A stretch of DNA of 64,000 bases from Sediminicola sp. YIK13. Lineage in GTDB: Bacteria; Bacteroidota; Bacteroidia; Flavobacteriales; Flavobacteriaceae. Shown in pieces: positions 31,765-50,710 of this stretch (position 1 is the first letter of the stretch; each line of letters begins with the position of its first letter). The stretch is taken from NCBI RefSeq assembly GCF_001430825.1, contig NZ_CP010535.1, positions 2,398,501 to 2,462,500 of the forward strand, in the 5' to 3' direction. Made by a program: the position numbers and the translations under genes. Under the pieces are notes generated by a model. The model searched no databases. It saw nothing but the letters and a program-made list of their open reading frames with translations, and was not told where the DNA came from.

Positions 31765-32895
31765 ATGGAACGAGGTAGAAGTGTTACATTAAAACATCTT
31801 TTGATTAAAGAGAAAAGATATATAGGTCTCCAATTCAATACGGATAAAGTTATCCATGCCCTAGTGAAACAGCTGCCGGATGTAAAATGGAGCAATAGTT
31901 TCAACATGGCCTATATTCCAAACACCAAAGAAAATCTAAATGAAATATTTGAGATCTTCAATAGAACTGTCTGGGTTAATTGCAACTACTTTTTTGATAA
32001 AAGCAATGTAAAAGAAACCAATGAACCTTTAGATATTACCTGGTTCAGAAAAAGGCAATTGCCTTCTACCTATCGAGTTTGTCCGAACAGCTATTTAGAT
32101 AAACTAGAATTAAAAAAATATGCAAACAATACGGTAAAGTCATATATATCTTCATTCGAGACATTTATTAATTATTACAATAACAAAGAGTTGGTTGCTA
32201 TAAATGAAGGTGACGTAAGAACGTATATTTTAAAATTGGTTCAAGAGGACAAATCCAATTCTTACATTAATTCTGCAATCAACAGTATCAAATTTTACTA
32301 CGAATCCGTTCTTGGTATGCCCAATAGATTTTATGAGATAGAAAGGCCTAGAAAAGAGAAAAAATTACCAAAGGTACTTTCCAAAGATGATGTTCTCAAT
32401 ATTATTGAACATACGAACAACTTAAAACATAAATGTATTGTTAGCCTTCTGTATTCTTCAGGAATACGGAGAAACGAATTGGTAAATTTAAAAATAACAG
32501 ATATAGACAGTAAAAGAATGTTGATACGAGTTGAAGCGGCGAAAGGCAATAAGGATCGCTATACATTACTTTCCCATTCATTGTTAAAAGATTTACGTGA
32601 ATATTACAAACAATGGAAACCGGAAAAATATATCATAGAAGGTATGTACGGAAGACAATATACTGGTCAAAGCATCGGGAAAATAGTGCTTAATGCCGCA
32701 GCAAAGGCAGGTATAAAAACGCCTGTGACACCCCATATGCTTCGTCATAGTTTTGCCACGCACTTGTTAGAAGCAGGGGTGGACTTAAGACAAATTCAGG
32801 TCTTATTGGGACATAGCTCTAGCAAGACTACCGAAATATATACGCATGTAGCTACCACTACCTTTAAAGAAATAAAGAATCCTTTAGATTTTTAA
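31765..32895 (+). CDS. Xer-like tyrosine recombinase of the cassette array (IntI-like position, no IntI insertion)
   Basis: From the ATG at 31765 the protein has 376 residues (a TTG at 31750 is an alternative). A roughly 95-residue N-terminal extension precedes a SAM-like core-binding domain (about 100-190) and a catalytic domain with R235 (SSGIRRNEL), K260 (AAKGNKDR), H324/R327 (HMLRHSFATH), H350 (LLGHSSS) and Y359 (EIYTH). Only about 63 residues separate K260 from H324, as in XerC/XerD, so the extra motif that defines integron integrases is missing. It lies directly before the attI-like region, in the same direction as the cassettes. It most likely inserts and excises them. Confidence 0.85.
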   Translation: MERGRSVTLKHLLIKEKRYIGLQFNTDKVIHALVKQLPDVKWSNSFNMAYIPNTKENLNEIFEIFNRTVWVNCNYFFDKSNVKETNEPLDITWFRKRQLPSTYRVCPNSYLDKLELKKYANNTVKSYISSFETFINYYNNKELVAINEGDVRTYILKLVQEDKSNSYINSAINSIKFYYESVLGMPNRFYEIERPRKEKKLPKVLSKDDVLNIIEHTNNLKHKCIVSLLYSSGIRRNELVNLKITDIDSKRMLIRVEAAKGNKDRYTLLSHSLLKDLREYYKQWKPEKYIIEGMYGRQYTGQSIGKIVLNAAAKAGIKTPVTPHMLRHSFATHLLEAGVDLRQIQVLLGHSSSKTTEIYTHVATTTFKEIKNPLDF

Positions 32896-32906
32896 AAAAT
32901 ATAAAA

Positions 32907-32934
32907 GATATATATAACATATGTTCTATATATC
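32907..32934. promoter_or_regulatory. attI-region palindrome 1 (imperfect)
   Basis: A 28-bp palindrome centred on AACATATGTT with one mismatched pair, starting 12 bp after the recombinase stop codon. It shares its centre with the next palindrome 39 bp downstream. It is a candidate recombinase or regulator binding site. Confidence 0.6.
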
Positions 32935-32946
32935 CTATATTGTGGT

Positions 32947-32972
32947 GTATAATGAACATATGTTCATTATAC
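32947..32972. promoter_or_regulatory. attI-region palindrome 2 (perfect 26 bp)
   Basis: GTATAATGAACAT is followed by its exact reverse complement. The palindrome ends five bases before the first cassette core GTTACCAT at 32977. Position and symmetry suit an attI recombinase site, although an operator is possible. Confidence 0.65.
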
Positions 32973-32976
32973 AATT

Positions 32977-32990
32977 GTTACCATACATAC
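32977..32990 (+). other. attI-like core joined to cassette 1
   Basis: GTTACCATACATAC begins the first cassette. It is the reverse complement of the sequence GTACGTATGGTAAC that ends the same cassette at 33481-33494 except for one base, so this is the attI x attC junction. No earlier attC-like site precedes it. Confidence 0.8.
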
Positions 32991-32996
32991 TATCAA

Positions 32997-33476
32997 ATGC
33001 CTCGAATTGAATTACGGACGTATATTAAAGCTGACAAGAATATAGTGTTCGACCTGTCTAGGAGTATCGACTTACACAAAATATCGACTGAACATACAAA
33101 TGAAGAGGCCATTGATGGCGTGACCGAAGGCTTAATTGGATTAAATCAAACCGTTACATGGAGGGCCAAGCATTTTGGAATTTATCAAACCCTTACCTCC
33201 AAAGTGACCGAATTTTCTCGACCAAAGTTGTTTACAGATGAAATGGTGAAAGGAGCTTTTAAAAACTTTAAGCACGTGCACCAATTTAACGATCTTGAGA
33301 ACGGTACTGAATTGATAGACGTATTTGAATATCAATCTCCGCTTGGGTTTTTAGGCAGTTTAGCTGACAAGCTATTCTTAAAACAATATATGACCGACCT
33401 TTTATTAAAAAGAAATGAAACCATAAAGGAATTCGCTGAATCTGAAAAATGGAGAGAAGTGTTACCTAAAAATTAA
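32997..33476 (+). CDS. Cassette 1: SRPBCC-family ligand-binding protein
   Basis: I start at the ATG at 32997, just after the attI-like core; the longer open frame runs back through the palindromes. The 159-residue protein has the START/SRPBCC helix-grip pattern: IELRTYIKADKNIVFDLSRS, MVKGAFKNFKHVHQF and YQSPLGFLGSLADKLFLKQY. Such proteins bind hydrophobic ligands and are often annotated as cell-division inhibitor-like. It is cytosolic and the first gene after the integration site. Confidence 0.82.
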   Translation: MPRIELRTYIKADKNIVFDLSRSIDLHKISTEHTNEEAIDGVTEGLIGLNQTVTWRAKHFGIYQTLTSKVTEFSRPKLFTDEMVKGAFKNFKHVHQFNDLENGTELIDVFEYQSPLGFLGSLADKLFLKQYMTDLLLKRNETIKEFAESEKWREVLPKN

Positions 33477-33484
33477 AAAAGTAC

Positions 33485-33628
33485 GTATGGTAACAAGGGC
33501 TATAATCCATTGTTTAGCATATTTACTACAATTCAAAACTTTTCGTACTTTAGTCCGGCATGATCCCAAGCTCGATTTGATTAACATCAAATCTCAACAA
33601 CGGAATCATAGCCTAAACGTTGGCACAC
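33485..33628 (+). repeat. attC1 (family A, core 130 bp)
   Basis: Left box GTATGGTAAC pairs with the start of cassette 1 (32977), and the right GTTGGCACAC starts cassette 2. Inner arms are GGCTATAATCCATTG and CAACGGAATCATAGCC. An internal GATTTGAT/ATCAAATC hairpin is present. Nearly identical copies are attC4, 6, 12 and 15. Confidence 0.9.
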
Positions 33629-33637
33629 ATTTGAAAA

Positions 33638-34252
33638 ATGGAAATCTATCTAATCTTATTCTTACTTCTGATTGGACTAATTATCGGACTGATTATTTGG
33701 ATAGTCCGACTGTTCAGTGTGTACAGAAAAGGGAAGAAAAAATCTTTTGCCATTCAAGTTTCCATTTTGACTGTATTGCTGATTCTTTTGACTTGGGAAC
33801 TTCAAATATTTCCGCTATCAAAAAATTTCTACATACAGGACAGAACAACCAAATTAACAGGTAAAAAATTCTGGAGTTGGGAAGAATTCGATTATGAAGA
33901 AATTAGTGTCCGTGGAGAAGGTTACACATTGGACATATATAAGTTTAGTGAAGAGACAGCTGAATATTTTAAGAATCCTGACAAGGAATTTTTTGAGAAC
34001 TTTCCGACAAAAGAACTAGCTGACATAAGGTGGACAAGAACCCCAGTTAAAGAAAGCGAACAAGAAATTTTGGAATTCGCGACACCAACTTATGGTGGAT
34101 GGAAAGGCGCAATAATTAACCGACAAGATTTTATAAGACAAATTGCAAATCACCCAGGGTCCTTTTATTCATATGATGACGGTGAAAGTACGAATTTCTA
34201 TTTAATTGTACCTGACAAAAGACTAGTGGTTTTGATTAACCATAATATGTAA
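33638..34252 (+). CDS. Cassette 2: membrane protein of unknown family
   Basis: A 204-residue protein with two N-terminal membrane helices (about 3-25 and 36-55: ILFLLLIGLIIGLIIWIV and ILTVLLILLTWELQIF) and a soluble domain of about 150 residues. That part contains TPTYGGWKGAIINRQDFIRQ. No family recognised. The leader between the cassette start and the ATG is only about 18 bases, so the promoter lies in or before the upstream attC. Confidence 0.72.
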   Translation: MEIYLILFLLLIGLIIGLIIWIVRLFSVYRKGKKKSFAIQVSILTVLLILLTWELQIFPLSKNFYIQDRTTKLTGKKFWSWEEFDYEEISVRGEGYTLDIYKFSEETAEYFKNPDKEFFENFPTKELADIRWTRTPVKESEQEILEFATPTYGGWKGAIINRQDFIRQIANHPGSFYSYDDGESTNFYLIVPDKRLVVLINHNM

Positions 34253-34267
34253 TGAAAAAATAAAAAC

Positions 34268-34470
34268 GTGTGCCAACAATAGCTATAAGTAATGCGGAAT
34301 TTGGTGTTTAATTTTAAAGTAAGCGTATATTTACTATGTCCGCAAAATCTTTTCGATTTTGCTCTGTCGAAAAAATATAAATCAAAACAAAAAGCTTTTG
34401 CTACGTGCGAAGACGGAAACAAAAACGTTTCCTTGCCTCCGCACTACTCATAGCTGAAGCGTTGTAGCTA
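34268..34470 (+). repeat. attC2 (family C, core 189 bp)
   Basis: Left box GTGTGCCAAC complements the start of cassette 2 (GTTGGCACAC); right GTTGTAGCTA starts cassette 3. Inner arms are AGCTATAAGTAATGCGG and CCGCACTACTCATAGCT. An internal GCAAAATC/GATTTTGC hairpin lies in the loop. Confidence 0.9.
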
Positions 34471-34472
34471 AT

Positions 34473-34874
34473 TTGATCAAAATGATTAAAACATTGATAA
34501 GTCGACTCCTCCTTTCAGAAAAAAAACGAATGGAAATTATGAACGACCTTAAAAGCAATCCAAATTTCCGATCTAAGGATGAAATCGACAAAAATGGACC
34601 GAACTCTAATAGTGTATCCGATTTTAAATTGGATAAGGGAGAAGTTCAAACCATTTTCACACCAGAATTAGGAAATCAAAAAGGTCTGACCTTATCAAAA
34701 TGGTTTTATAAATCTGGAGATATTGTTAAATCCGGAGATATTATTTGTGTCATTGAAAACGAGGATATAACCATGGAGTTTGAAAGTGTATTTAATGGAC
34801 GAATTATATCTACCTGTAGATTGAATGAAAAGCTGACTAGCTCAACTGAATTATTTAAAATTGAAGGAATATAA
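34473..34874 (+). CDS. Cassette 3: lipoyl/biotinyl-like domain protein without the modifiable lysine
   Basis: A 133-residue protein with a hydrophilic N-terminal half and a C-terminal biotinyl/lipoyl-like beta barrel (about 55-130: LSKWFYKSGDIVKSGDIIC, IENEDITMEFES, NGRIISTCRLNEKLTSS). At the tip the family normally has ETDKA with a modified lysine; here it reads ENEDITME, with aspartate instead. The fold therefore should not carry lipoate or biotin. The 36-residue start (MIKMIKTLISRLLL) may be partly hydrophobic. Confidence 0.78.
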   Translation: MIKMIKTLISRLLLSEKKRMEIMNDLKSNPNFRSKDEIDKNGPNSNSVSDFKLDKGEVQTIFTPELGNQKGLTLSKWFYKSGDIVKSGDIICVIENEDITMEFESVFNGRIISTCRLNEKLTSSTELFKIEGI

Positions 34875-34878
34875 AAAC

Positions 34879-35015
34879 TAGCTACAACAATGGCTATAAT
34901 TCATTGTGGCATCATGCAAAAAACAAAAATATTAACCACCAAACGGCCTGATTTCATAAGTGGGAAAGTCTACGACGTTCCCCACAACGAAATCATAGCC
35001 TAGGCGTTACCACAT
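34879..35015 (+). repeat. attC3 (family B, core 123 bp)
   Basis: Left box TAGCTACAAC complements cassette 3's start (GTTGTAGCTA); right GTTACCACAT starts cassette 4. Inner arms are GGCTATAATTCATTGTGG and CCACAACGAAATCATAGCC. Copies: attC8, 9, 10. Confidence 0.9.
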
Positions 35016-35020
35016 ATTTA

Positions 35021-35557
35021 ATGACGCATCATAAATCATTAATCCCTTTATTTTTCTTCACCATTTGTCTTGCCTGTAATACAAACGGAGAAAAGGAATC
35101 TATTGACTACGGAACTGCTAAAATAAGTAATGCCCGACAAGAGATAAATGCTCGAGAACATCATAATTTCACATGTGAAAAAAGAACGGAGGAAAATCCA
35201 TTTGGAAATTTCACCGAATTGGAGTTGGACGAAAATGAACTGCGCTTTACAAATATTGAAAGTAGCCTATTTGAAGGAAGGACAATCAACTTTAAAATAA
35301 ATAAAATGTTGAATATTTCTGAGGTAAGCTATAACGAATGGATTGACGTAATCCATAATGATAGAACTGAAAAATATAAGGTGGTGGAAAGTGGAATCAA
35401 TTTGAATATCGACCCTTTTAAAACAGAGGGACAGGAATTGGTTGCAGATTATTATTTAAAAGTAAAGCACACTACTGATTTTAAATGGTCATGGAATAAA
35501 GATGTAAATTATTTTATTGTAACCGGCAGGTTTAAATGTAATAAAAACATGTGGTAA
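35021..35557 (+). CDS. Cassette 4: hypothetical lipoprotein
   Basis: A 178-residue protein with a lipoprotein signal (lipobox LACN, cysteine near residue 19). The mature part is hydrophilic, with a LDENELRFTNIE strand region, and ends in a FIVTGRFKCNKNMW tail. No recognised family. The stop codon is inside the attC4 left box, so the coding frame ends in the recombination site. Confidence 0.75.
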   Translation: MTHHKSLIPLFFFTICLACNTNGEKESIDYGTAKISNARQEINAREHHNFTCEKRTEENPFGNFTELELDENELRFTNIESSLFEGRTINFKINKMLNISEVSYNEWIDVIHNDRTEKYKVVESGINLNIDPFKTEGQELVADYYLKVKHTTDFKWSWNKDVNYFIVTGRFKCNKNMW

Positions 35558-35691
35558 CAAGGGCTATAATCCATTGTTTAGCATATTTACTACAATTCAA
35601 AACTTTTCGTACTTTAGACCGGCATGATCCCAGCTCGATTTGATTAACATCAAATCTCAACAACGGAATCATAGCCTAAACGTTAGCTGCA
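35549..35691 (+). repeat. attC4 (family A, core 129 bp)
   Basis: Left box ATGTGGTAAC complements cassette 4's start (GTTACCACAT); right GTTAGCTGC starts cassette 5. The cassette 4 stop codon TAA is part of the left box. Confidence 0.9.
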
Positions 35692-35709
35692 AGTTAAAAA
35701 AAGACGAAA

Positions 35710-36507
35710 ATGGGACGACATAAAATGACCTCTGGTATTTGTCACTTATGTGGTCTAAATTCAATGTTGTCTTTTGAACATGTTCCTCCAAGAAGCACCT
35801 TCAATAAAAACACAAAATATTCATCAATAGCTTTTGAGGATTATGTAAAAACCGAAAACCCATTAAAAAATACTCCTAAAGGAAAAACAAAACAGGGTGG
35901 AATTGGATATAACTCTTTTTGTAAGTATTGTAACAACTTCTTGGGTTCGGAATATGTCCCAGCATATCAAAGATGGGTAACTGGTGGATTTCAAATATTG
36001 CAAAATAAAGAATTTGAATTACATACATATTTAATCAAGGAAATAGAACCGCAAAAAATATTAAAGCAAATTGTCTCTATGTTTTTGGCAATTAATGGAG
36101 AATGGTATTTAAAATCATATCCCGAATTATCAGATTTTGTCGCCTCAAAAGATTCAAAAGAATTACCTGCCCGTTTCAAAGTTTTTTGCTATTTAACACG
36201 GGCTGAAAACATCAGATATATGCATCATGTGGTACATGGCAACTTTGCAACAGGTACTTCAATAAATTGTACTGAAATAGCCTATCCTCCATACGGATAT
36301 GTTTTGACAATGGATTCTGGAAATGAAATCCAGTATCTAAATAATATAACTGAATTCAAAAATCTTAATAAAAAGATGGACTTGAATATTAATATGTTTC
36401 AATTGTCTACATATATGCCCTTTCCTCTAGATTATCGTACAAAAGAACAAGTTGAAAAGGGAATTGAAGATGCAATACAAACTAGTCGAAAAAATGAAAA
36501 AAACTAA
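35710..36507 (+). CDS. Cassette 5: HNH/zinc-finger endonuclease-like protein
   Basis: A 265-residue protein starting with CHLCG at residue 11, then a FEHVPPRS motif, then FCKYCNN near residue 76. Two CxxC pairs around a histidine/proline motif are the pattern of HNH-type zinc-binding nuclease domains, but the catalytic histidine pair is not clear. The rest is not recognised. The start could be the ATG six codons downstream (MTSGIC). This is one of the few cassettes with a possible DNA-acting product. Confidence 0.65.
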   Translation: MGRHKMTSGICHLCGLNSMLSFEHVPPRSTFNKNTKYSSIAFEDYVKTENPLKNTPKGKTKQGGIGYNSFCKYCNNFLGSEYVPAYQRWVTGGFQILQNKEFELHTYLIKEIEPQKILKQIVSMFLAINGEWYLKSYPELSDFVASKDSKELPARFKVFCYLTRAENIRYMHHVVHGNFATGTSINCTEIAYPPYGYVLTMDSGNEIQYLNNITEFKNLNKKMDLNINMFQLSTYMPFPLDYRTKEQVEKGIEDAIQTSRKNEKN

Positions 36508-36516
36508 TAAAAACCA

Positions 36517-36721
36517 GCAGCTAACAATACCTATAGCAAATAGGGCAAAAAGAGCTAAATTTAATGGCTTGGGTTTATTTACTAAGTCCGCCAAATCTTT
36601 CGGATTTGGCTTTTAAAATGAAAAAGATAAAAACAAAACAAAAAGCTTTGGCTAAGAGCCCAGGCGGAAACGAAAAGTTTCCTTGCCTGCCCTACTTGCC
36701 ATAGCCGGAACGTTGTGCTCA
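36517..36721 (+). repeat. attC5 (family D variant, core 192 bp)
   Basis: Left box GCAGCTAAC complements cassette 5's start (GTTAGCTGC); right GTTGTGCTCA starts cassette 6. Inner arms are CCTATAGCAAATAGGGC and GCCCTACTTGCCATAGC. A GCCAAATC/GATTTGGC hairpin lies in the loop. Confidence 0.88.
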
Positions 36722-36730
36722 ATTTCTATA

Positions 36731-37276
36731 ATGCAGAATATCGAGAATTTAATAAGTAAAATCATACCTCCTGACTCTCGTGAGGAACGGGAAGGATTTA
36801 CCAATGACGAGATAATTTCAGCATTGACTTCGGAGGAACATAAGGCCGTTGAAATAAGACTTATCCAAATGCTGGATAAAAAAGCCGACCTTCTTATTGG
36901 ACAAACATTGGTCAAAATGGAATCAGTAAATTCCCTTTCTACTTTACTAAAACGACTTGAACTAAAGAATTCCCCATTTGAAAGAATCATTTGGGCTGGA
37001 TTAATCAACAACTTAAAAATGGGCGATCCTGAAATGGAAAAAATCGCTTTTGAGGAATTTGAAAAATTGGAATTCATCTACGCTATCCAAGGTGGAATTT
37101 TTCTTGATTTAATAAAATTTGACAGTCCGAGAATTAACTGTCGAATTGAACTGTTTGTAAACCACAAGTATGACCTGGTAGCACACCACGCAAAAATGGT
37201 ACTGAATCATAATGGTTACGCCGATGCATTTAATGAGAAGGCTGTACACAATAGATGGTGGGAATTGTGGAAATAA
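36731..37276 (+). CDS. Cassette 6: HEAT-like helical protein of unknown family
   Basis: A 181-residue all-helical protein from the ATG at 36731; the frame is open further back into attC5, so the annotated start matters. It contains MLDKKADLLIGQTLVKMESV and LVAHHAKMVLNHNGYADAFNEK, which look like HEAT repeats, as in some immunity proteins. I cannot assign a function. The last residues (HNRWWELWK) leave 14 bases before attC6. Confidence 0.65.
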   Translation: MQNIENLISKIIPPDSREEREGFTNDEIISALTSEEHKAVEIRLIQMLDKKADLLIGQTLVKMESVNSLSTLLKRLELKNSPFERIIWAGLINNLKMGDPEMEKIAFEEFEKLEFIYAIQGGIFLDLIKFDSPRINCRIELFVNHKYDLVAHHAKMVLNHNGYADAFNEKAVHNRWWELWK

Positions 37277-37280
37277 AAAC

Positions 37281-37424
37281 TGAGCACAACAAGGGCTATA
37301 ATCCATTGTTTAGCATATTTACTACAATTCAAAAGTTTTCGTACTTTAGACCGGCATGATCCCAAGCTCGATTTGATTGACATCAAATCTCAACAACGGA
37401 ATCATAGCCGAACCGTTGTACACA
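37281..37424 (+). repeat. attC6 (family A, core 130 bp)
   Basis: Left box TGAGCACAAC complements cassette 6's start (GTTGTGCTCA); right GTTGTACACA starts cassette 7. Confidence 0.9.
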
Positions 37425-37434
37425 AGTTGTCAAA

Positions 37435-37932
37435 ATGCGAATAACCGAATTCCTTTTAACATTATTAATATCCCAAATATGTTTTGGACAAGCTAGAATT
37501 GTTGGAGTTTATAACGACCGATTTTCGGAAAGTATTGAACTAAAAGCAGACTCAACATTTACTCACAATTACAAATTTGACCTCGCATCAAGTTGGACTA
37601 CTGGGAAGTGGAAATTTAAGAATGGCAAAATATCACTTCAAACCAAGCTGATAATGGACACTCTTGTACTTGGGGAAAGTGGACAAAAAAAGTTGAAAGA
37701 TTCTTTAGTTTTATCTCCAGACAAAGTTTCTAATCGAGTTGGGTTTAGTGATTATGCAATATCTTCAATATCTGGTGGTGGACAAAATAGAGTAAAACCT
37801 CCTAGTCAACTATATTGGAAAAAAAAGAGACTATATCGAATTAACGAAGATGGGACTTTGGATTTGAGAAAGCTAAAAGGGTTTTGGACCGACAAAAAGT
37901 ATAAAACATATTTTAGAAAAGAAACCGAATAA
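37435..37932 (+). CDS. Cassette 7: secreted lipocalin-like protein
   Basis: A 165-residue protein with a signal peptide (residues 1-19, ending CFGQA). The mature part is beta-rich with YNDRFSESIELKADSTF and WTTGKWKFKNGKISLQT, the pattern of small lipocalin-like or DUF-type periplasmic domains in Bacteroidota. The function is unknown. The leader between cassette start and ATG is about 20 bases. Confidence 0.7.
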   Translation: MRITEFLLTLLISQICFGQARIVGVYNDRFSESIELKADSTFTHNYKFDLASSWTTGKWKFKNGKISLQTKLIMDTLVLGESGQKKLKDSLVLSPDKVSNRVGFSDYAISSISGGGQNRVKPPSQLYWKKKRLYRINEDGTLDLRKLKGFWTDKKYKTYFRKETE

Positions 37933-37937
37933 AAACC

Positions 37938-38141
37938 TGTGTACAACAATGGCTATAATTAATGTGGGGTTTGGGTTTTAAAGTCAAGGTCTGTGTATAT
38001 TTATAAGGTCGCAAAATCTTTGGGATTTTGCTTTGGACAAGAAAAATTAAAACAAAACGAAAAGATTTGGCTACGAGCTGTGGCGGTTTAGGAATTGTAA
38101 ATCACCGCCCCACACTAATCATAGCCGAGACGTTGTACAAC
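37938..38141 (+). repeat. attC7 (family D, core 190 bp)
   Basis: Left box TGTGTACAAC complements cassette 7's start (GTTGTACACA); right GTTGTACAAC starts cassette 8. Inner arms are GGCTATAATTAATGTGGGG and CCCCACACTAATCATAGCC. Confidence 0.9.
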
Positions 38142-38162
38142 ATTTAACTAAACAAGACGAAA

Positions 38163-38645: not shown

Positions 38646-38761
38646 TTCATTGTGGCAGTATGCAAAAAACAATAATAGAAACCATCAAACGGCCTGATTT
38701 CATAAGTGGAGAAGTCTACGACGTTCCCCACAACGAAATCATAGCCTAGGCGTTGGCAACA
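38625..38761 (+). repeat. attC8 (family B, core 123 bp)
   Basis: Left box GTTGTACAAC is self-complementary and equals the start of cassette 8; right GTTGGCAACA starts cassette 9. Confidence 0.9.
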
Positions 38762-38789
38762 ATTGGATAATGAAATATAATAATTAAGA

Positions 38790-39038: not shown

Positions 39039-39047
39039 ATAATAAAC

Positions 39048-43645: not shown

Positions 43646-43662
43646 ATTATAAAACCGACATT

Positions 43663-44769
43663 ATGGTAAAAATTAGTGATAAGATGATATTAAATGCAAA
43701 GAACTTAATTTTAGTTCTTCTGACAATTCAAATCACTTCGTGCACAGGACAAGTGAAAGAAAAATCTGTTACTAAAATAAAAGAAAATGAAGTAAACACC
43801 CAACCACTCATTTTGAATCAAAGCACGACATTTCCTCAAATTCACACCAACTTACATGGAATGGTTAGAGAGTTTGTAAGGACAATGCATCAAGACAAAA
43901 AAGAGAATTATTGGTTTGGAACAAATGGTGATGGGATTATACGCTATGATGGACAAATACTTGAAAAAATCACTATTGCAGGAATCAACCCACGTTTTAG
44001 GGTTTTAGAGATTGTAGAAGACAAAGCAGGTAATTTATGGTTTGGAACATCCGAAGGACTCATAAAATATGATGGTAAAGAGTATACAACATTTTCAAAA
44101 AAAGAAGGATTGCAGAATGAAGAAATTTGGGGTTTAACAATTGATAAAAGCGGACTTATTTGGGTTGGTTCGACAGGAGGTGTTAATCAATTTGACGGAG
44201 AGAAGTTTATACCTTTTTCGTTGCCAAATTCAATAGCCGAAAATGCAAAACCTATGCTATCTGACAAATTGGTTTTTAAAATCATAGAAGACAAAAATGG
44301 AAATATGTGGTTTGCTACTGATGGAAATGGAATATTCAAATATAACAACGGGAAGTTTACTCATTTAACAACCAAAAACGGACTTGTCGATAATAATACA
44401 GCTGATATTTTAGAAGACAGTCAAGGAAATATTTGGATTGGAACTTTTTATGGTGGTGTGAGCAAGTTTGATGGTAAAACGTACACGAACTTCACTAAGG
44501 ATGGAATTATTGCAGGTGAAGAAACTTACAATTTTTATGAAGACAGCCAAGGGAATATTTGGTTTACGGCTGAAGGTTATGGTGTTTACCGATATGATGG
44601 CAATAATTTCAAACAATTCACAACCGAAGATGGCTTAACATCTAATGTCACACAAAGTATTCTCGAGGACAAAAAAAGACAAGTTTGGTTTGGAAGCTGG
44701 CAAGGACTATGCATTTTTGATGGACAAAAAATCATGAATGCCAAGGACAAAGAACCTTGGACGAACTAA
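43663..44769 (+). CDS. Cassette 14: lipoprotein with Reg_prop beta-propeller repeats
   Basis: From the ATG at 43663 the 368-residue protein has a lipoprotein signal ending ITSCTG. It then carries at least seven repeats of the two-component-regulator propeller type, for example GNLWFGTSEGLIKYDG, GNIWIGTFYGGVSKFDG and GNIWFTAEGYGVYRYDG. This is the sensor half of hybrid two-component systems without the kinase. The frame is open further upstream through attC13, but that part is not conserved coding. Role: perhaps ligand binding at the cell surface. Confidence 0.8.
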   Translation: MVKISDKMILNAKNLILVLLTIQITSCTGQVKEKSVTKIKENEVNTQPLILNQSTTFPQIHTNLHGMVREFVRTMHQDKKENYWFGTNGDGIIRYDGQILEKITIAGINPRFRVLEIVEDKAGNLWFGTSEGLIKYDGKEYTTFSKKEGLQNEEIWGLTIDKSGLIWVGSTGGVNQFDGEKFIPFSLPNSIAENAKPMLSDKLVFKIIEDKNGNMWFATDGNGIFKYNNGKFTHLTTKNGLVDNNTADILEDSQGNIWIGTFYGGVSKFDGKTYTNFTKDGIIAGEETYNFYEDSQGNIWFTAEGYGVYRYDGNNFKQFTTEDGLTSNVTQSILEDKKRQVWFGSWQGLCIFDGQKIMNAKDKEPWTN

Positions 44770-44776
44770 AAATAAC

Positions 44777-44915
44777 TGTTGCTAACAGCGTGTATAATTA
44801 ATTGCTTTGGCTAGTGCTTCTCACGAAAATTCCTTCGGAATTTCCTCTGGCAAGTATTTGTTTACTACATTAGTTGCGAACCACGCAACTAACCATACAC
44901 CAAACGTTAGCGCCA
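44777..44915 (+). repeat. attC14 (family F, core 125 bp)
   Basis: Left box TGTTGCTAAC complements cassette 14's start (GTTAGCAACA); right GTTAGCGCCA starts cassette 15. The inner stem is GTGTATAATTAATTGC with GCAACTAACCATACAC. Confidence 0.88.
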
Positions 44916-45265
44916 ATGGTGCAATAAAAAACAAAGCAGTACGGAGTGTAACGCTGAATAAAAGAGTAAACCACGGCTCGGGCAAAGCTGATCCTTTTTA
45001 AATTGCCTTACCAATCTGTACGCAAGCAGAACGCACTCACGCCCTAGTTTGACCCTAAAAAGGCAATTTATAAAAGGTTTAAGTGCGTTAAGTTGTTATA
45101 ACGCCTTCACTATGGCCCGGGCAACACCAAAGGCGCTAACAAGGCCTATAATCCATTGTTTAGCGTATTTACTACAAATCAAAAGTTTTCGTACATTAGA
45201 CCGGCATGATCCCAAGCTCGATTTGATTGACATCAAATCTCAACAACGGAATCATAGCCTAAACG
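44907..45265 (+). other. Cassette 15: no evident gene (about 230 bp before attC15)
   Basis: The insert of about 230 bp has no credible protein-coding frame; the open frames across it start or end in the flanking attC sites. It contains several inverted repeats, including AAATTGCC/GGCAATTT and GAACGCACT/AGTGCGTT. The cassette ends are GTTAGCGCC and GGCGCTAAC, an exact pair. It may encode a structured RNA or be a decayed cassette. Confidence 0.7.
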
Positions 45266-45274
45266 TTGGCAAAC
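45132..45274 (+). repeat. attC15 (family A, core 130 bp)
   Basis: Left box GGCGCTAAC complements cassette 15's start (GTTAGCGCC); right GTTGGCAAAC starts cassette 16. Confidence 0.9.
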
Positions 45275-45290
45275 ATTTAGAACTTTTAAA

Positions 45291-45701
45291 TTGAAATCAA
45301 AAATCCTAACATTTATTTTAACCAAAGGACTTGTTATCGGCGGACTATTTATGCTCATAATTACTGTTATCATATTGAATAATGGAATTGTTAAAAAGAG
45401 AATAACCGAGGAGAATAATGTTGTTTCAGCTAAAGTGCTTGAAACGCCAATGGACTGTGATAATCTCGGACGGAGAGGCGGATATTATAAATTACAATAT
45501 AATGGGCAAGTATTCGTAAAAAAGGGCAATAGACTAATTTGCAAAACAATTTACGGGAAAAAGGAGGTAAACGTGCTAACGAATGCGCAGATGGACAAAC
45601 TAATTTTTCTAAATGAATATGAAGAATCGAATGACTTCTTGTACGGGATTTTATTGGGACTTTTTGGGCTAGTTATTACCTATAAGGGATGGAAAAAATA
45701 A
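45291..45701 (+). CDS. Cassette 16: two-helix membrane protein
   Basis: A 136-residue protein from a TTG at 45291. Hydrophobic helices flank a soluble loop: one near residues 8-30 (FILTKGLVIGGLFMLIITVI) and one at 115-132 (FLYGILLGLFGLVITYKGW). The loop has two cysteines and a YKLQYNGQVF strand, like DUF3592-type proteins, although not firmly assigned. Confidence 0.65.
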   Translation: MKSKILTFILTKGLVIGGLFMLIITVIILNNGIVKKRITEENNVVSAKVLETPMDCDNLGRRGGYYKLQYNGQVFVKKGNRLICKTIYGKKEVNVLTNAQMDKLIFLNEYEESNDFLYGILLGLFGLVITYKGWKK

Positions 45702-45707
45702 AAACGA

Positions 45708-45907
45708 TTTGCCAACAAAACCTATACGTAATGCGGACGTTATAGCTAAACCGAAAGGTCTGTGTATATTTATAAAGTCGCTAAATCTTATGGATTTAGC
45801 TTTAGAATAAAAAAATAAATCAAAACAATAAGCTTTAGCTTCGTGCTCAGACGGAAACGAAAAGTTTCCTTGCCTCCGCACTACGCATAGCTAAACCGTT
45901 GTCATTA
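45708..45907 (+). repeat. attC16 (family C variant, core 187 bp)
   Basis: Left box TTTGCCAAC complements cassette 16's start (GTTGGCAAA); right GTTGTCATTA starts cassette 17. Inner arms are CCTATACGTAATGCGG and CCGCACTACGCATAGC; the C of TATACG pairs with the G of ACGCATAG, a compensatory change relative to attC2. Confidence 0.88.
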
Positions 45908-45920
45908 ATTTTAAAGGAAT

Positions 45921-46391
45921 ATGAAATTCAAATATTTGCTGCTATATACCACAATGGCAGCAATCTTCCTGTTAGCCTCTTGTAAAGAGAAAAAAAATGA
46001 TGAGAAATCGAATGATCAAGTTGAATTAAAACGCGAATTCTCTAACAAGAATATGGTACCTCTTATTGAAAATTGTGAATCAGACCCTACTCTATCATGT
46101 TTACAAAATACAATAAGTGACATAATACTTGAAGAAGCTAAAAAAAGAAAAGTGTCTTTGATAAATGATACCCTTCAGGTTGAAATTCTAGTTAAATATG
46201 ATGGTTCAACATCAATATTAAAAAATAAAACGAGTAATCCATTACTTGAGAAAATCAGTTATGACGCCCTTAGTTCGCTTCCCGAAATAGAGCCCGCATA
46301 CACCGATTTTCAAAATAGTTATGTGAATATGTCCTTTTCTTGGTTTATTATAATTCAAAACGATGTATTGACAAATAGGATAAAAGAATAA
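45921..46391 (+). CDS. Cassette 17: hypothetical lipoprotein
   Basis: A 156-residue protein with a lipoprotein signal (lipobox LASC, cysteine near residue 21). The mature domain carries CESDPTLSCLQN and a C-terminal DFQNSYVNMSFSWFIIIQN, which may resemble the TonB C-terminal-like fold. That is uncertain. The start is 23 bases after the cassette junction. Confidence 0.7.
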   Translation: MKFKYLLLYTTMAAIFLLASCKEKKNDEKSNDQVELKREFSNKNMVPLIENCESDPTLSCLQNTISDIILEEAKKRKVSLINDTLQVEILVKYDGSTSILKNKTSNPLLEKISYDALSSLPEIEPAYTDFQNSYVNMSFSWFIIIQNDVLTNRIKE

Positions 46392-46396
46392 AAAAC

Positions 46397-46599
46397 TAAT
46401 GACAACAATACCTATAAGTAATGCGGGGTTTGGTGTTTAATCTAAAGTAAGCGTATATTTACTATGTCCGCAAAATCTTTTGGATTTTGCTCTGGCAACA
46501 AAAATATAAACCAAAACAAAAAGCTTTTGCTACGTGCGAAGACGGAAACGAAAAGGTTTCCTTGCCTCCGCACTACTCATAGCTGAAGCGTTGGCACCA
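46397..46599 (+). repeat. attC17 (family C, core 189 bp)
   Basis: Left box TAATGACAAC complements cassette 17's start (GTTGTCATTA); right GTTGGCACCA starts cassette 18. Confidence 0.9.
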
Positions 46600-46718
46600 A
46601 TTAAAAAAACAACAAATCTAACAGATTGACAAGAGTGCCGTAAAAATGTCGCAAACAAACCGATATCAAAACCATTGATTCATATGCAGTTTTGTAAAAA
46701 CAAAAAACAGAATTAATT

Positions 46719-47282
46719 ATGAACGAAATCGGAAATAAAATTCGAGAAATAAGAAAGAAAAAAGGACTTTCTCAAGAGGAATTAGCAGAATCCGCAAAAA
46801 TCAATTTAAGAACAATACAGCGAATCGAAAACAACGAAAGTGAGCCTCGAGGAAAAACACTTAATTTAATATGTGAAGTACTCGATATAAATGCCGAAGA
46901 TATTTTAGATTACGGAAAACAAACTGACAAAAGTTATTTGATCATTTTTCATCTTTCTGTTATATCTTTTTTAGCGATTCCTGTCGGAAATATAATTCTT
47001 CCTTTGATTTTGTGGATGAATAAAAAAGATCGAGTAATTGGACTTAAAAAAGTAGGAGCTAACCTATTGAATTTTCAAATCATTTGGTCAATTATAGCGT
47101 TTCTATCTATTACCGGATTTGCTTTATTAAAAATATTGAACTTTAAATATTATCCAATTCTATTTTACCTATTCATTGGACTTTACGCTATGAATGTAAT
47201 ATTACCGATAATTTTTGCTATTAAAACTAATAAAGGAAAAACAGAAAATTTATATCCTAACATAATAAAACTGATAAAATAA
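46719..47282 (+). CDS. Cassette 18: XRE-type HTH membrane protein
   Basis: A 187-residue protein with an N-terminal XRE helix-turn-helix (residues 5-58: LSQEELAESAKINLRTIQRIE) and a C-terminal membrane part of three or four helices (from about 72). It has the same layout as the chromosomal gene at 5504, showing that the cassette and its host carry versions of one family. Its leader is about 125 bases, the longest among the cassettes, with no further gene in it. Confidence 0.78.
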   Translation: MNEIGNKIREIRKKKGLSQEELAESAKINLRTIQRIENNESEPRGKTLNLICEVLDINAEDILDYGKQTDKSYLIIFHLSVISFLAIPVGNIILPLILWMNKKDRVIGLKKVGANLLNFQIIWSIIAFLSITGFALLKILNFKYYPILFYLFIGLYAMNVILPIIFAIKTNKGKTENLYPNIIKLIK

Positions 47283-47283
47283 C

Positions 47284-47486
47284 TGGTGCCAACAATACCT
47301 ATAAGTAATGCGGGGTTTGGTGTTTAATTCAATGGTTTGCGTATATTTACTATGTCCGCAAAATCTTTTGGATTTTGCTCTGGCGAAAAAATATAAATCA
47401 AAACAAAAAGCTTTTGCTACGTGCGAAGACGGAAACAAAAAGGTTTCCTTGCCTCCGCACTACTCATAGCTGAAGCGTTGGCAGTC
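47284..47486 (+). repeat. attC18 (family C, core 189 bp)
   Basis: Left box TGGTGCCAAC complements cassette 18's start (GTTGGCACCA); right GTTGGCAGTC starts cassette 19. Confidence 0.9.
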
Positions 47487-47489
47487 ATA

Positions 47490-49073
47490 ATGAAAAAACT
47501 AACAATCATAACAATTTTTTTTGCCTTGCTGGGATGTTCACCAAAAATAAATGAACATTTTGAGCAAAATAGATATATCCAAAATTTCAATATTCATGTA
47601 ATAAATGACTCATTACAACTGTATTTTAAAACACCAGCAGACATAACTTATATAACGGACAGAAAAAAATTAAAGAAAGTTATTCGTAATGCAAAATTTA
47701 ATCTAGTAGATAGTGTTTTAGTTTATGGGAAAACTGATGATCCAGCGTATGAATATTTTGTTACTATTTCTAAAAAAAATACCCATAATTACCCAAAAGA
47801 ACTTGTTGTTTTAGATACATTAATCAATAATCAAACGATACGGTTTATAGGAAATTCATTATCTCATAACTCAAAAGTAGCCTTAGAATTTGATTTGAAA
47901 AGTATGTTTAAAAGTATAGAATTAGACTCTTCATATCGAAAACAAATCAATACGGTATATGACGTTGTACAAAAATATTACACTTCCAATAAATTTTATG
48001 CTGCACTAAATGAGATTAGCCAGTTTCCAACCTATGACCAACAAGAGGAATGGTCGAAACTGCAAATGGAACTAACTTTTTCCTCATTTCTCGGAAAAAA
48101 CGAATTCTATGAAGATTACATAAGAAAACTTGAATCGAAACATAAACCGAACGATACAATATCCGAAATAATAAGAGCAAAATCCGTATATAATTCAAAT
48201 GTCATAGCAACGATTATTAAAGAAGCAAAAAATCATAAAATTTTAATGATAAATGAAAACCATTTCTTTCCTAACCACAGAATATTGGTATCCAATTTGT
48301 TGCCAAAACTAAAAGAAATAGGATATAATTATTTAGCATTAGAAGCACTAAACACAAATCAAGACAGTCTATTAAATCTACCAAATACCTATCCCACACT
48401 TGAAACAGGTTTTTACACAAGTGAACAAAACTTTGCCAACCTAATTAGAAAAGCGAAAGAACTTGGATTTGAATTTATAGCATATGAAAGCTCAGAGGAC
48501 CATAAAAATAGGGAAATTGGTCAAGCGGAAAATTTATATAACAAAACCTTTAAAGTTAACCCTAACTCCAAAGTTGTGGTCCTAGCGGGTATTGACCATA
48601 TACTTGAAAAACCGGAAAGTAGTGGGAAAGAATGGATGGCGACCTTTTTCAAGAATAAATATAATATTGACCCACTTACAATAAGTCAAACTCACTTGAA
48701 TCCATATAGAAATCAAATTAATTCAGATTATGGAATAATTAAAAGCAACTTTTTCGAAAATGAAAGATTATCGTCTGTAGATTATTTGGTTCTAAATAAC
48801 AATCCGAACAATCAAATAGAAAACCACACAAAATATCCATATAGAAACAATACAAAAAATGATGTACAAGTAGCGTTGTTTTATGGCAATGAAATCGAAT
48901 ACCAATATGACTATCTTAATAAGGTTCCATATTTTACAACCATATTGAAATCAGGAAAGAAAACTGAACTACCTATAGATGAGAAACAAGAAATATATTT
49001 ATACACATTTGACAAGAACGGAACAAGCATGGAAAAACAAATAATTACGCCTGCCAACAATGCCTATAATTAA
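47490..49073 (+). CDS. Cassette 19: lipoprotein with ChaN/EreA-like domain
   Basis: From the ATG at 47490 the 527-residue protein has a lipoprotein signal (lipobox LLGCS). The middle (about 255-385) resembles the ChaN/EreA superfamily: KILMINENHFFPNHRILVSN (ENH motif), NYLALEAL, FIAYESSEDHKNRE and VVVLAGIDHIL. The N-terminal 230 residues are unassigned. A chromosomal ChaN-type gene is at 11496. Its stop codon lies within attC19. Confidence 0.78.
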   Translation: MKKLTIITIFFALLGCSPKINEHFEQNRYIQNFNIHVINDSLQLYFKTPADITYITDRKKLKKVIRNAKFNLVDSVLVYGKTDDPAYEYFVTISKKNTHNYPKELVVLDTLINNQTIRFIGNSLSHNSKVALEFDLKSMFKSIELDSSYRKQINTVYDVVQKYYTSNKFYAALNEISQFPTYDQQEEWSKLQMELTFSSFLGKNEFYEDYIRKLESKHKPNDTISEIIRAKSVYNSNVIATIIKEAKNHKILMINENHFFPNHRILVSNLLPKLKEIGYNYLALEALNTNQDSLLNLPNTYPTLETGFYTSEQNFANLIRKAKELGFEFIAYESSEDHKNREIGQAENLYNKTFKVNPNSKVVVLAGIDHILEKPESSGKEWMATFFKNKYNIDPLTISQTHLNPYRNQINSDYGIIKSNFFENERLSSVDYLVLNNNPNNQIENHTKYPYRNNTKNDVQVALFYGNEIEYQYDYLNKVPYFTTILKSGKKTELPIDEKQEIYLYTFDKNGTSMEKQIITPANNAYN

Positions 49074-49250
49074 TGCGGCCTTGTTTCAAATATGCAAGGT
49101 CTATTTATATTTATGATGTCGCTAAATCTTTTGGATTTAGCTTTGGATAAAACAATAAACAAATCAAAACCAAAGGCTTTAGCTTAGCGCTTAGCTGGAA
49201 ATCCGTTTGATTTCCGCCCCGCACTAATCATAGCCTAGGCGTTGCCACAC
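49051..49250 (+). repeat. attC19 (family D, core 188 bp)
   Basis: Left box CTGCCAAC complements cassette 19's start (GTTGGCAG); right GTTGCCACAC starts cassette 20. Cassette 19's coding frame ends inside it at 49073. Confidence 0.88.
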
Positions 49251-49257
49251 ATTTAAA

Positions 49258-49860
49258 ATGAAAAACCTCAAAGAGCCATTAATATTATTTGGAATTGCAT
49301 ATATTATTTATGGAATCGTAATGAATATTAGAATGTTCACAGAACAAATGTGGCCAACTTTCTTGTTCTTCATTTCGATAGTTATTGGAATAATTCTTTT
49401 GCTATTAAACCGACCGACCAAAAAATTAAAACATTACAAAATTTGGCAAATAGTTATCGGCTTGATTCCCGTAACATTTTTCTTCATTTATATGCAAATT
49501 GTTAATGCTAATAACGAATTCGACATAAAAACCGAAAACTCCATCGAAAGTAAAACGTCATATTTTAGACAAGGAATTTGGATTAACGAAAAGGATTCTC
49601 TTGTTGGAATTGAAATAAAAGGCGGAAATTGGATAATGTTTTATAAAGGACAAGAAATAGACCCAACGGATATTTATGAATTTACTATAACTAACGAATT
49701 ACCTAAATATACTAATACGAAATTAAAGGCTGGAAAGTTCTTAATATTAACAAACAAATCAGACACTCTGAATTATGAAATACTTGGATACAATAAAGAA
49801 TTTTTAAATCTAAAGTATTTTCCGAAAGGCAATATTTTGACATACAGAAAAGAAAAATAA
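49258..49860 (+). CDS. Cassette 20: membrane protein of unknown family
   Basis: A 200-residue protein with three N-terminal membrane helices (about 8-24, 33-49, 61-80) and a C-terminal soluble domain with beta pattern (KGGNWIMFYKGQEIDPTD, LKAGKFLILTNKSD). No family recognised. It starts 17 bases after the cassette junction. Confidence 0.7.
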   Translation: MKNLKEPLILFGIAYIIYGIVMNIRMFTEQMWPTFLFFISIVIGIILLLLNRPTKKLKHYKIWQIVIGLIPVTFFFIYMQIVNANNEFDIKTENSIESKTSYFRQGIWINEKDSLVGIEIKGGNWIMFYKGQEIDPTDIYEFTITNELPKYTNTKLKAGKFLILTNKSDTLNYEILGYNKEFLNLKYFPKGNILTYRKEK

Positions 49861-49864
49861 AAAC

Positions 49865-50002
49865 GTGTGGCAACACTGTGCATAAGCCATGGCTTGTCCT
49901 CGTACACTTGGAAAATCCTGCGGATTTTCCTCTGGCAAGTATCGGTCTGGAATGTTCCGTAACGAACCCATGCCACAGCTCATACACCAAGCGTTACCTA
50001 CT
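49865..50002 (+). repeat. attC20 (family F, core 124 bp)
   Basis: Left box GTGTGGCAAC complements cassette 20's start (GTTGCCACAC); right GTTACCTACT starts cassette 21. It shares the loop GATTTTCCTCTGGCAAGTAT with attC14, with few differences. Confidence 0.85.
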
Positions 50003-50005
50003 ATA

Positions 50006-50578
50006 TTGAAAAAAGCGTTAGTCATATTAATTATTTTCGTCTGCTCTTGTAAAAGTGCACAAGAGAATATTGCATTTGACCAAAAATTGGACTTGTGTTA
50101 CAGAGCGAAAGCGGAACAAAGGAATAGATTCATGGCTGTCCCAGCGGACAGTCTTTTCATTTATGGAAATTTTTTGTCGGGAATTGAAAACGGACTTTTG
50201 CTCAGTCGGACTTTAAACAAAATTGATAAGAAATCGTATAAAGAACTGTTTTCTAAAATTAAAACTGAAGATGCCAAAAAAACTATCGTCCAGGACTTAA
50301 AAATTGGAAGCGAACAGGAGAAAAGGACCATTGATACAATCTATCTGGACTTGGGATGTTTTTCTGCTTTAGTACAACTGGAAAAACTGGTGGACGAAAA
50401 CGACTTTCGATATAAGATGAATAAAATTGGGGAGAAATTACTTATGGACACCTATAATTACGAATTGATTGACCAACTTATAGATGTGATTCCGGATAAG
50501 GAATTTCAAAAAATTGAGTATCGTAGAATGTTGCTTCGACTAATTTATAATCATTTAACAACGGAGAAAATACAGTAG
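50006..50578 (+). CDS. Cassette 21: hypothetical lipoprotein
   Basis: From a TTG at 50006 (MKKALVILIIFVCSCKSAQ) the protein has a lipoprotein signal with lipobox VCSC and a 170-residue helical mature part (LDLCYRAKAEQRNRF, KRTIDTIYLDLGCFSALV). No family recognised. The longer open frame upstream lies in attC20. It is the last cassette before the array ends. Confidence 0.72.
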   Translation: MKKALVILIIFVCSCKSAQENIAFDQKLDLCYRAKAEQRNRFMAVPADSLFIYGNFLSGIENGLLLSRTLNKIDKKSYKELFSKIKTEDAKKTIVQDLKIGSEQEKRTIDTIYLDLGCFSALVQLEKLVDENDFRYKMNKIGEKLLMDTYNYELIDQLIDVIPDKEFQKIEYRRMLLRLIYNHLTTEKIQ

Positions 50579-50710
50579 GTAACAATACCTATAATCCATT
50601 GCTGCATTTTAACTAAAAATGAAAAACACTAACTTTAAAACGGCCCGATTCCAGACGTACAATTTCCGTTGGAAATTATCCGCAACGGAATCATAGCCGA
50701 ACCATTATAA
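50574..50710 (+). repeat. attC21: terminal site with degenerate right end
   Basis: The left box AGTAGGTAAC complements cassette 21's start (GTTACCTACT), and the inner arms ACCTATAATCCATTGC and CGCAACGGAATCATAGC follow the family pattern. At the right end, where all others have GTT, the sequence is CATTATAA. The array ends here. Confidence 0.82.

What the first reader, a model, noticed from the sequence alone, without database searches (positions are those of the whole stretch)
31765..50710. An integron-like cassette array of 21 units in a Bacteroidota mobile element
A tyrosine recombinase is followed at once by an attI-like region and 21 head-to-tail cassettes, all with genes on the + strand and each ending in an attC-like site. 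The cassettes differ in content, yet the sites share a fixed architecture: outer boxes ending AAC and starting GTT, short unpaired spacers, inner complementary arms and an apical region. Integrons are mostly known from Proteobacteria and a few other phyla; this one has a non-canonical recombinase and very long sites. It looks like a separate or divergent cassette-shuffling system. This is the main candidate for an undescribed system.
Basis: partly seen in the sequence, partly recalled or inferred. Interest (0 to 1): 0.96.

Follow-up and report, generated by a model that had tools for sequence, protein, structure and literature searches.

The report
Integron-like gene-cassette array in Bacteroidota
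A Bacteroidota chromosome carries a row of 21 gene cassettes that move as exact units, behind a recombinase that likely captures and reshuffles them as folded single-stranded DNA; sites of the same kind occur in most genera tested of its family, and the same kind of system likely builds the toxin-immunity gene arrays of gut Bacteroides.

Summary
In detail: 21 attC-like sites and 21 cassettes follow a tyrosine recombinase (31765-32895) and end at 50706. Each cassette's first bases after GTT pair with its own last bases before AAC, not with its neighbour's, so each unit closes on itself. The units move: elsewhere in the same chromosome window cassettes 8 and 9 recur with a copy of cassette 15 inserted between them, exact at GTT. 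Top-strand A.C mismatches at fixed places (G.T wobbles on the bottom strand) indicate that the bottom strand folds, as in integrons. By the defining test the recombinase is not an integron integrase: the IntI insertion is absent (58-59 against 100 residues) and its family is a clade apart. That clade also holds recombinases of rAID-type immunity arrays of gut Bacteroidales, whose genes obey the same rule. Sites occur in 139 of 149 genomes (one per genus) of the host family. Inferred: that this recombinase is the enzyme, that circles are the intermediate, that the folded bottom strand is the substrate. Verdict: real; works like an integron; not a member by the IntI definition; a widespread divergent variant.

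The parts
31765..32895 (+). Tyrosine recombinase, 376 aa: N-terminal extension (about residues 1-105), SAM-like domain, catalytic domain
   Evidence: Pfam PF00589, PF13495, PF02899; no IntI insertion; tree
32947..32979 (+). attI-like point: perfect 26-nt palindrome (32947-32972), AATT, GTT (32977-32979)
   Evidence: read; homology between relatives ends here or shortly after
32980..33621 (+). Cassette 1 (159 aa; weak polyketide-cyclase match), site 33492-33621
33622..34463 (+). Cassette 2 (204 aa, no Pfam), site 34275-34463
34464..35008 (+). Cassette 3 (133 aa, biotin/lipoyl domain), site 34886-35008
35009..35684 (+). Cassette 4 (178 aa, no Pfam), site 35556-35684
35685..36714 (+). Cassette 5 (265 aa; DUF577 below cut-off), site 36523-36714
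36715..37417 (+). Cassette 6 (181 aa, no Pfam), site 37288-37417
37418..38134 (+). Cassette 7 (165 aa, no Pfam), site 37945-38134
38135..38754 (+). Cassette 8 (160 aa, bacterial PH domain), site 38632-38754; copy in the third array of the chromosome
38755..39177 (+). Cassette 9 (82 aa), site 39055-39177; copy in the third array
39178..40330 (+). Cassette 10 (214 aa SLATT_5 and 113 aa), site 40208-40330
40331..42069 (+). Cassette 11 (516 aa, alpha/beta-hydrolase and TPR matches), site 41947-42069
42070..42490 (+). Cassette 12 (89 aa, no Pfam), site 42361-42490
42491..43638 (+). Cassette 13 (226 aa ABC ATPase), site 43449-43638
43639..44908 (+). Cassette 14 (368 aa, two-component regulator propeller), site 44784-44908
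44909..45267 (+). Cassette 15 (no + strand ORF of 40 aa or more), site 45138-45267; copies in both other arrays of the chromosome
45268..45900 (+). Cassette 16 (136 aa, no Pfam), site 45714-45900
45901..46592 (+). Cassette 17 (156 aa, no Pfam), site 46404-46592
46593..47479 (+). Cassette 18 (187 aa, HTH and DUF4870), site 47291-47479
47480..49243 (+). Cassette 19 (527 aa, no Pfam), site 49056-49243
49244..49995 (+). Cassette 20 (200 aa, no Pfam), site 49872-49995
49996..50706 (+). Cassette 21 (190 aa, not scanned with Pfam), terminal site 50581-50706 ending ATT; the head after it does not pair with the tail before that site

Best explanation
The window holds an array of 21 gene cassettes that move as exact units bounded by GTT, and the tyrosine recombinase next to it likely inserts free circular cassettes at the attI-like palindrome behind its own gene, and likely excises them again, by recombining the folded bottom strand of each cassette's attC-like site. 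Shown by sequence: exact cassette boundaries, movement of single cassettes, strand-polar sites, and a recombinase clade found at the head of such arrays in several Bacteroidota groups. Inferred: that this recombinase is the enzyme, that the intermediate is a circle, that the substrate is a single-stranded hairpin, and that the strand is told by fixed G.T wobbles. It works like an integron, with an integrase family that lacks the IntI insertion and has an N-terminal extension of about 105 residues.
For: Cassette rule: in 21 of 21 the own tail is the best or tied partner of the head; with sites found by structure alone, 156 of 169 consecutive cassettes in 9 arrays pair at 6 or 7 of 7 and 248 of 276 in 31 regions that include those nine. 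Movement: in the third array of the chromosome cassette 15 stands exactly between cassettes 8 and 9, which adjoin in the window (first 100 nt of cassette 9 match 99 after 15, 35 after 8); both neighbours differ in 7 of 7 shared pairs between arrays and 25 of 29 within arrays (pairs within one repeated cassette are not independent). A first cassette of 1059 nt is 97.6% identical behind two different family integrases, ends within 3 nt of the predicted borders (L072/L077). Entry point: similarity of integrase regions stops at the predicted attI GTT, 0-4 nt past it in many pairs and up to 35 nt in others. Strand polarity: first outer-arm mismatch A.C 109, G.T 0, other 23 of 132, and 122, 0, 31 of 153 in a partly overlapping set; inner arms read without gaps A.C 137 against G.T 10; A.C at stem positions 6-8 and again at 10-13 in 105 of 132 sites, G.T at the same places in 0 and 3. 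Covariation score 0.269 against 0.052 shuffled. Link to the enzyme: arrays start just behind family integrases in window, second own array, 12 of 21 related loci and 12 of 14 Bacteroidales loci.
Against: No experiment; no circle or junction read was seen. The third array (2.835-2.852 Mb) has no close family integrase beside it (the nearest match is 29% identical, 5.7 kb away), so the enzyme can act in trans and need not be the window's. Of 20 regions taken next to phylum-wide relatives, 10 gave a chain of 3 or more above all shuffles; L071, L072, L073, L074, L080, L082 and L085 did not exceed shuffles, nor did plasmid loci L031, L035, L036, L037, and in L070, L079 and L083 the chain lies far from the integrase; the detector is biased to the site lengths known here. 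In the second own array only 10 of 14 cassettes fit. Folding energies favour the bottom strand only slightly (4 of 4 sites, 0.3-0.9 kcal/mol). Sites descend from each other, so wobble counts are not independent. NCBIfam model NF040815, named XerA-type recombinase/integron integrase, scores over its cut-off (231 against 220), so by that label the protein is Xer-like.
Confidence: 0.85

Rival explanations
1. It is an ordinary integron: the integrase is a drifted member of the IntI family that lost its additional domain.
For: Same layout and same strand polarity; IntI4 (2a3v) is second in the PDB sequence search and first by Foldseek on a poor model; PMC8138268 (passages) says the catalytic insertion is not fully conserved in its integron-like subgroup.
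Against: KGxKxR to HxLRH is 58-59 residues in 49 of 50 family members measured (63 in one) and 100 in 25 of 25 IntI measured; family and IntI are separate clades, support 99/88 and 100/99; TIGR02249 scores 207, cut-off 265; heads fit GTTRRRY in 11 of 153.
Confidence: 0.1
2. The repeats are dispersed hairpin elements that spread between genes, and array changes come from homologous recombination between repeats.
For: Sites of one class are alike (pairs of 130-nt sites about 68-90% identical), so unequal crossing-over is possible and may cause some tandem copies.
Against: It does not explain why each head pairs with its own tail. In the inserted copy of cassette 15 the left junction keeps the site of cassette 8 to its GTT (118 of 123) and the right junction is cassette 15's own site, so the exchange lies in the last few bases.
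Confidence: 0.05
3. The array is a real cassette array but another recombinase, host XerC/D or the second family integrase, does the work; the window's integrase is idle.
For: The third array lacks a close family integrase yet shares near-identical cassettes with the others. A second, 55% identical family integrase exists.
Against: Integrase, palindrome and GTT are kept together in many relatives with different cassettes behind them; the window's gene is intact.
Confidence: 0.2

Closest known systems
Integrons (IntI, attI, attC), above all large chromosomal ones
   Same: Integrase gene, insertion point beside it, head-to-tail cassettes, AAC...GTT boxes, unpaired spacers, inner arms, variable apical part, bottom-strand polarity, large chromosomal arrays (51 sites over 54 kb in G424).
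   Different: No IntI insertion and a long N-terminal extension; separate clade; outer box is GTT, seven bases, A (A at position 8 in 153 of 153) and rarely GTTRRRY; main strand marks are G.T wobbles, with a register shift of one base in 29 of 132 sites; attI is a palindrome by eye in many of 21 regions; integrase and array run the same way.
rAID (recombinase-associated acquired interbacterial defence) of gut Bacteroidales, PMC12247911
   Same: Recombinases of L033, L034, L064 fall in the same clade; co-oriented short genes; conserved intergenic motifs, which are sites that obey the same head/tail rule.
   Different: Sites 42-50 nt ending mostly in ATT; genes are mostly immunity genes where annotated; the papers I could read describe no cassette mechanism. 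The reference recombinase BF9343_RS08045 was not compared.
Integron-like subgroup of tyrosine recombinases, Smyshlyaev 2021, PMC8138268 (passages)
   Same: Simple Xer-like recombinases serving cassette arrays; insertion not fully conserved there.
   Different: That paper gives no sites or arrays for members without the insertion in the passages I saw; whether this family is in the subgroup was not tested.

Membership tests
Integron (IntI-based) | Integrase with the IntI-specific additional domain | tested here: not met
   58-59 residues where 25 of 25 IntI have 100; named as defining or used for selection in PMC9668308 and PMC2426708 (passages)
Integron (IntI-based) | Integrase inside the IntI clade | tested here: not met
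   only Bacteroidota-phylum IntI were in the tree
Integron (IntI-based) | attC outer boxes RYYYAAC and GTTRRRY (consensus recalled) | tested here: not met
   AAC and GTT kept; RRRY in 11 of 153 heads
Integron (IntI-based) | attC as imperfect hairpin with inner arms and spacers | tested here: met
Integron (IntI-based) | Bottom-strand polarity of the site | tested here: met
   sequence asymmetry only; activity untested
Integron (IntI-based) | Extrahelical bases in the inner arm as strand mark | tested here: inconclusive
   register unchanged in 103 of 132 sites, shifted by one in 29; an extra base by eye in many short Bacteroidales sites
Integron (IntI-based) | Insertion point next to the integrase gene | tested here: met
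Integron (IntI-based) | Cassettes move singly | tested here: met
Integron (IntI-based) | Circular cassette intermediates | not testable with these tools
   no reads
Integron (IntI-based) | Common promoter Pc | not tested
   only motifs inside sites were counted
rAID | Recombinase of the rAID type | tested here: inconclusive
   same wider clade as L033, L034, L064 but 37-38% identical to the first two
rAID | Co-oriented short genes for orphan immunity proteins | tested here: not met
   co-oriented yes; no immunity family in 20 window ORFs scanned with Pfam
rAID | Conserved intergenic motifs | tested here: met
Xer (chromosome dimer resolution) | Recombinase acting at dif | not tested
   dif not sought; the two Xer-like proteins L003 and L004 fall outside the family, but NF040815 matches above cut-off

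The most novel reading that the evidence does not exclude
Bacteroidota have their own kind of integron: an integrase family without the IntI domain that reads strand by fixed G.T wobbles in a folded single strand, near-universal in Flavobacteriaceae, with arrays of tens of cassettes; the rAID immunity arrays of gut Bacteroides are its Bacteroidales branch, so gut bacteria collect toxin-immunity genes by cassette capture. The N-terminal extension, whose model is weakly nearest to the damage-recognition domain of XPB, does the hairpin recognition that the IntI domain does elsewhere.
Probability: 0.6. Interest if true: 0.95.

Novelty: new variant of a known kind. Interest (0 to 1): 0.88.

Why it matters
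A survey of complete genomes names one complete integron in Bacteroidetes proper, Salinibacter ruber (IntegronFinder 2.0, PMC9024848, passages), yet sites of this kind were found in 139 of 149 genera of the host family, while canonical IntI was found in 1 of 198 genomes of the class. If right, a large gene-capture system has been passed over by tools built on IntI and classical attC. It also puts in testable form how rAID clusters gain genes, which a 2025 preprint calls an area of active research (PMC12247911, section 14 read). And it offers a natural comparison for how tyrosine recombinases come to use folded single strands.

Tried and rejected
Chains by head/tail pairing without stems were too noisy in A+T-rich loci, and the reverse complement is no control because RTT...AAC is its own reverse complement; replaced by detectors that use site structure. 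Hairpin-only permutation tests on Bacteroidales arrays failed at first because sites were missed (L033 18 of 28, mean 14.5; L034 7 of 14, mean 8.0; L033 9 of 18, not significant; L034 33 of 36, reached by 54 of 20000 permutations); the chain test with decoy site lengths is the one used. The gapped stem alignment (314 A/C, 2 G/T, 26 C/A, 4 T/G in 134 sites; bottom strand better in 127, top in 1) scores A.C above G.T for the bottom strand, so its pair counts lean that way; I rely on the ungapped counts.

tet(X3) as a cassette: a truncated relative lies directly upstream of tet(X3) in L030, but by eye head and tail around it do not match; not claimed.

Literature: searches listed no paper that by title or abstract describes cassette arrays in Flavobacteriaceae or calls rAID an integron; most hits were seen as listings only. 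Ross 2019 (first rAID paper, recalled) is not held and may have noted a likeness. Only open-licence papers were searched.
Full report
What is there. A 376-aa tyrosine recombinase (31765-32895) is followed after 51 nt by a perfect 26-nt palindrome (32947-32972), AATT and GTT (32977-32979), then by 21 cassettes to 50706. All sites are on the + strand. In the window a site reads AAC, 3 nt, inner arm, apical part, inner arm, 5 nt, GTT (the last ends ATT). Lengths are 123-130 or 187-192 nt. The array has 33% G+C, the flanks 39-41%. Rfam finds only a tRNA in the window.

The cassette rule. After each GTT the first 5-7 bases are the reverse complement of the bases just before the AAC of the same cassette's own site, in 21 of 21: 142 of 168 positions over eight columns, against a permuted mean of 60.3 and a maximum of 95 in 100000. 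Measured instead within each site as it lies in the array (tail against the next cassette's head) it is 60 of 168. So the arms match only when a unit is closed on itself. To avoid circularity I then found sites by structure alone: 156 of 169 consecutive cassettes in nine arrays pair at 6 or 7 of 7, and 248 of 276 in 31 regions that include those nine. The same detector finds no site in 983 kb of shuffled sequence and 180 in 328 kb of the nine regions.

Movement. The chromosome (3.57 Mb, one contig) holds three arrays: the window's; one behind a second, 55% identical integrase at C1:62380-63489, running on the minus strand past the contig's first base; and one at 2.835-2.852 Mb. The covariance model gives 13, 27 and 16 hits there (56 in all at E<=1e-3; only 150 candidates were scored). 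Window cassettes 8 and 9 adjoin. In the third array their copies (95.7% and 98.7%) are separated by a 359-nt copy of window cassette 15 (94%), with junctions exact at GTT: the first 100 nt of cassette 9 match 99 of 100 after cassette 15 and 35 of 100 after cassette 8. The second and third arrays share stretches of 1286 and 826 nt at 99.5 and 99.9%. Over the 31 regions 36 shared pairs were found: both neighbours differ in 7 of 7 pairs between arrays (six of them within this chromosome) and in 25 of 29 within arrays; many of the latter come from one repeated cassette of G424, and in a few pairs an indel blurs an edge. A first cassette of 1059 nt is shared at 97.6% by L072 and L077, ends within 3 nt of the predicted borders, although their integrases are far apart on the tree (L045 and L053). 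Between relatives, similarity runs through the integrase and stops at the predicted attI GTT, 0-4 nt past it in many pairs and up to 35 nt in others, e.g. 96.6% over 1620 nt between L012 and L014, whose first cassettes differ.

Which strand folds. Pairing in the outer arm stops at an A.C mismatch (top strand) in 109 of 132 cassettes, at another mismatch in 23, and never at G.T; in a partly overlapping set of 153 of 169 cassettes (those with a run of 5 or more) the counts are 122, 31 and 0. A.C on the top strand is G.T on the bottom strand. Inner arms read without gaps give A.C 137 and G.T 10. In 132 of 134 sites (2 dropped for weak arms) A.C stands at stem positions 6-8 and again at 10-13 in 105; G.T at the same places in 0 and 3. 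In a 51-site alignment the two columns are A.C in 50 and 49 rows, while other stem columns covary (score 0.269, shuffled mean 0.052). The inference is that the bottom strand is the folded substrate, as in integrons (PMC2727003, abstract and passages), here marked by wobbles. Folding energies separate the strands only slightly.

Spread. Integrase relatives at E<=1e-50: 110 of 392 genomes of the phylum, 104 of 149 in the host family. Model R1 sites at E<=1e-4: 139 of 149 of the same family sample, one genome per genus, with 23 candidates scored per genome. Of the 10 genomes without sites 9 also lack an integrase hit. In 12 genomes that carry canonical IntI, 10 have no R1 hit and 2 have one or two. 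Among the 21 loci, 12 show chained cassettes behind the integrase; several others end within a few hundred bases of it. Among 20 regions next to phylum-wide relatives 10 gave chains of 3 or more above all shuffles and 7 did not exceed shuffles. The largest array read has 51 sites over 54 kb (G424), 49 of 50 cassettes fitting the rule.

Gut relatives. Plasmid-borne relatives at 36-38% identity head arrays in Bacteroides ovatus, Parabacteroides distasonis and Phocaeicola massiliensis; in the two that are annotated the genes include SUKH (SMI1/KNR4), Imm26, Tdi1 and PoNi-type immunity proteins. This fits rAID as described in PMC12247911: tyrosine recombinase, co-oriented short genes, conserved intergenic motifs; that text uses the word integron 0 times. 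With site length set to 39-49 nt, 14 loci give chains of 3 to 11 consecutive cassettes with a run of 6 or more, against at most 3 for eight decoy lengths and at most 3 for shuffles; L136 (chain 3) is the weakest, and in L133 and L134 the chain does not start at the integrase. Of 79 cassettes compared, five pairs shared between loci at 91-99.8% have different neighbours on both sides, with identity 0.93-1.00 just inside (0.70 at one end of one) and 0.20-0.45 outside; 4 further pairs keep both neighbours and 2 keep one. So genes of rAID-type arrays travel as cassettes.

How it would work (inferred). A circle carries one whole site; as single strand its bottom strand folds, and the outer arm (GTT plus about 7 bp, then a G.T) is closed only in the circle. 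The integrase joins it at GTT to the duplex attI, so a new cassette comes to lie first. Excision reverses this between two sites. Shown are exact boundaries, movement and strand asymmetry only.

Is it an integron? It works like one. By the published test, the IntI additional domain (PMC9668308, PMC2426708, passages), it is not a member. PMC8138268 (passages) notes that the insertion is not fully conserved in its integron-like subgroup, so part of this family may already sit there unnamed. I rate it a new variant of a known kind. Literature limits: ten searches of open-licence papers; Ross 2019 could not be read.

Noticed in passing
L030 (Acinetobacter indicus plasmid NZ_CP041297.1, 17376-28071): A truncated relative of this integrase (matches residues 146-376, 51%) lies directly upstream of tet(X3), and the same match is listed for other Acinetobacter plasmids; by eye tet(X3) is followed by something like the left half of a site, but head and tail do not match.
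   Followed up: partly
G000:C1 9-62 kb and 3.559-3.569 Mb (minus strand); G000:C1:2835265-2851505 (plus strand): Two more arrays of the same kind in the window's chromosome, one behind a second family integrase, one without a close one beside it.
   Followed up: yes
39178-40330: Cassette 10 pairs an SLATT_5 protein (PADLOC: reverse-transcriptase-associated SLATT, DRT) with a 113-aa ORF without PADLOC match: possibly a defence cassette.
   Followed up: no
34326, 37996, 43499, 45765, 46454, 47342, 49106: TATATTTA at a similar place in 7 of the 8 long sites, + strand only; could be promoter-like and face the next gene, or shared descent.
   Followed up: partly
50966-57320: Right flank: DUF6730, MobA-type relaxase, Toprim and DUF5906 genes, another tyrosine integrase (55744-57012, -) and tRNA-Arg (57248-57320, -): looks like the end of a mobilizable element.
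   Followed up: no
G336:C6:49040-49164, G336:C46:2068-2190, G048:C42:9377-9498: Isolated sites of this kind in genomes outside the class that also hold canonical IntI.
   Followed up: no
L031 and L037 (Chryseobacterium plasmids): The regions behind the integrase hold IS110 and group II intron genes (L031) or an IS91 gene (L037); L031 has a repeated element that mimics a site.
   Followed up: no
L135 1167-4292: Tandem duplicate of one cassette in a Bacteroidales array, a natural case of raised gene dosage.
   Followed up: no
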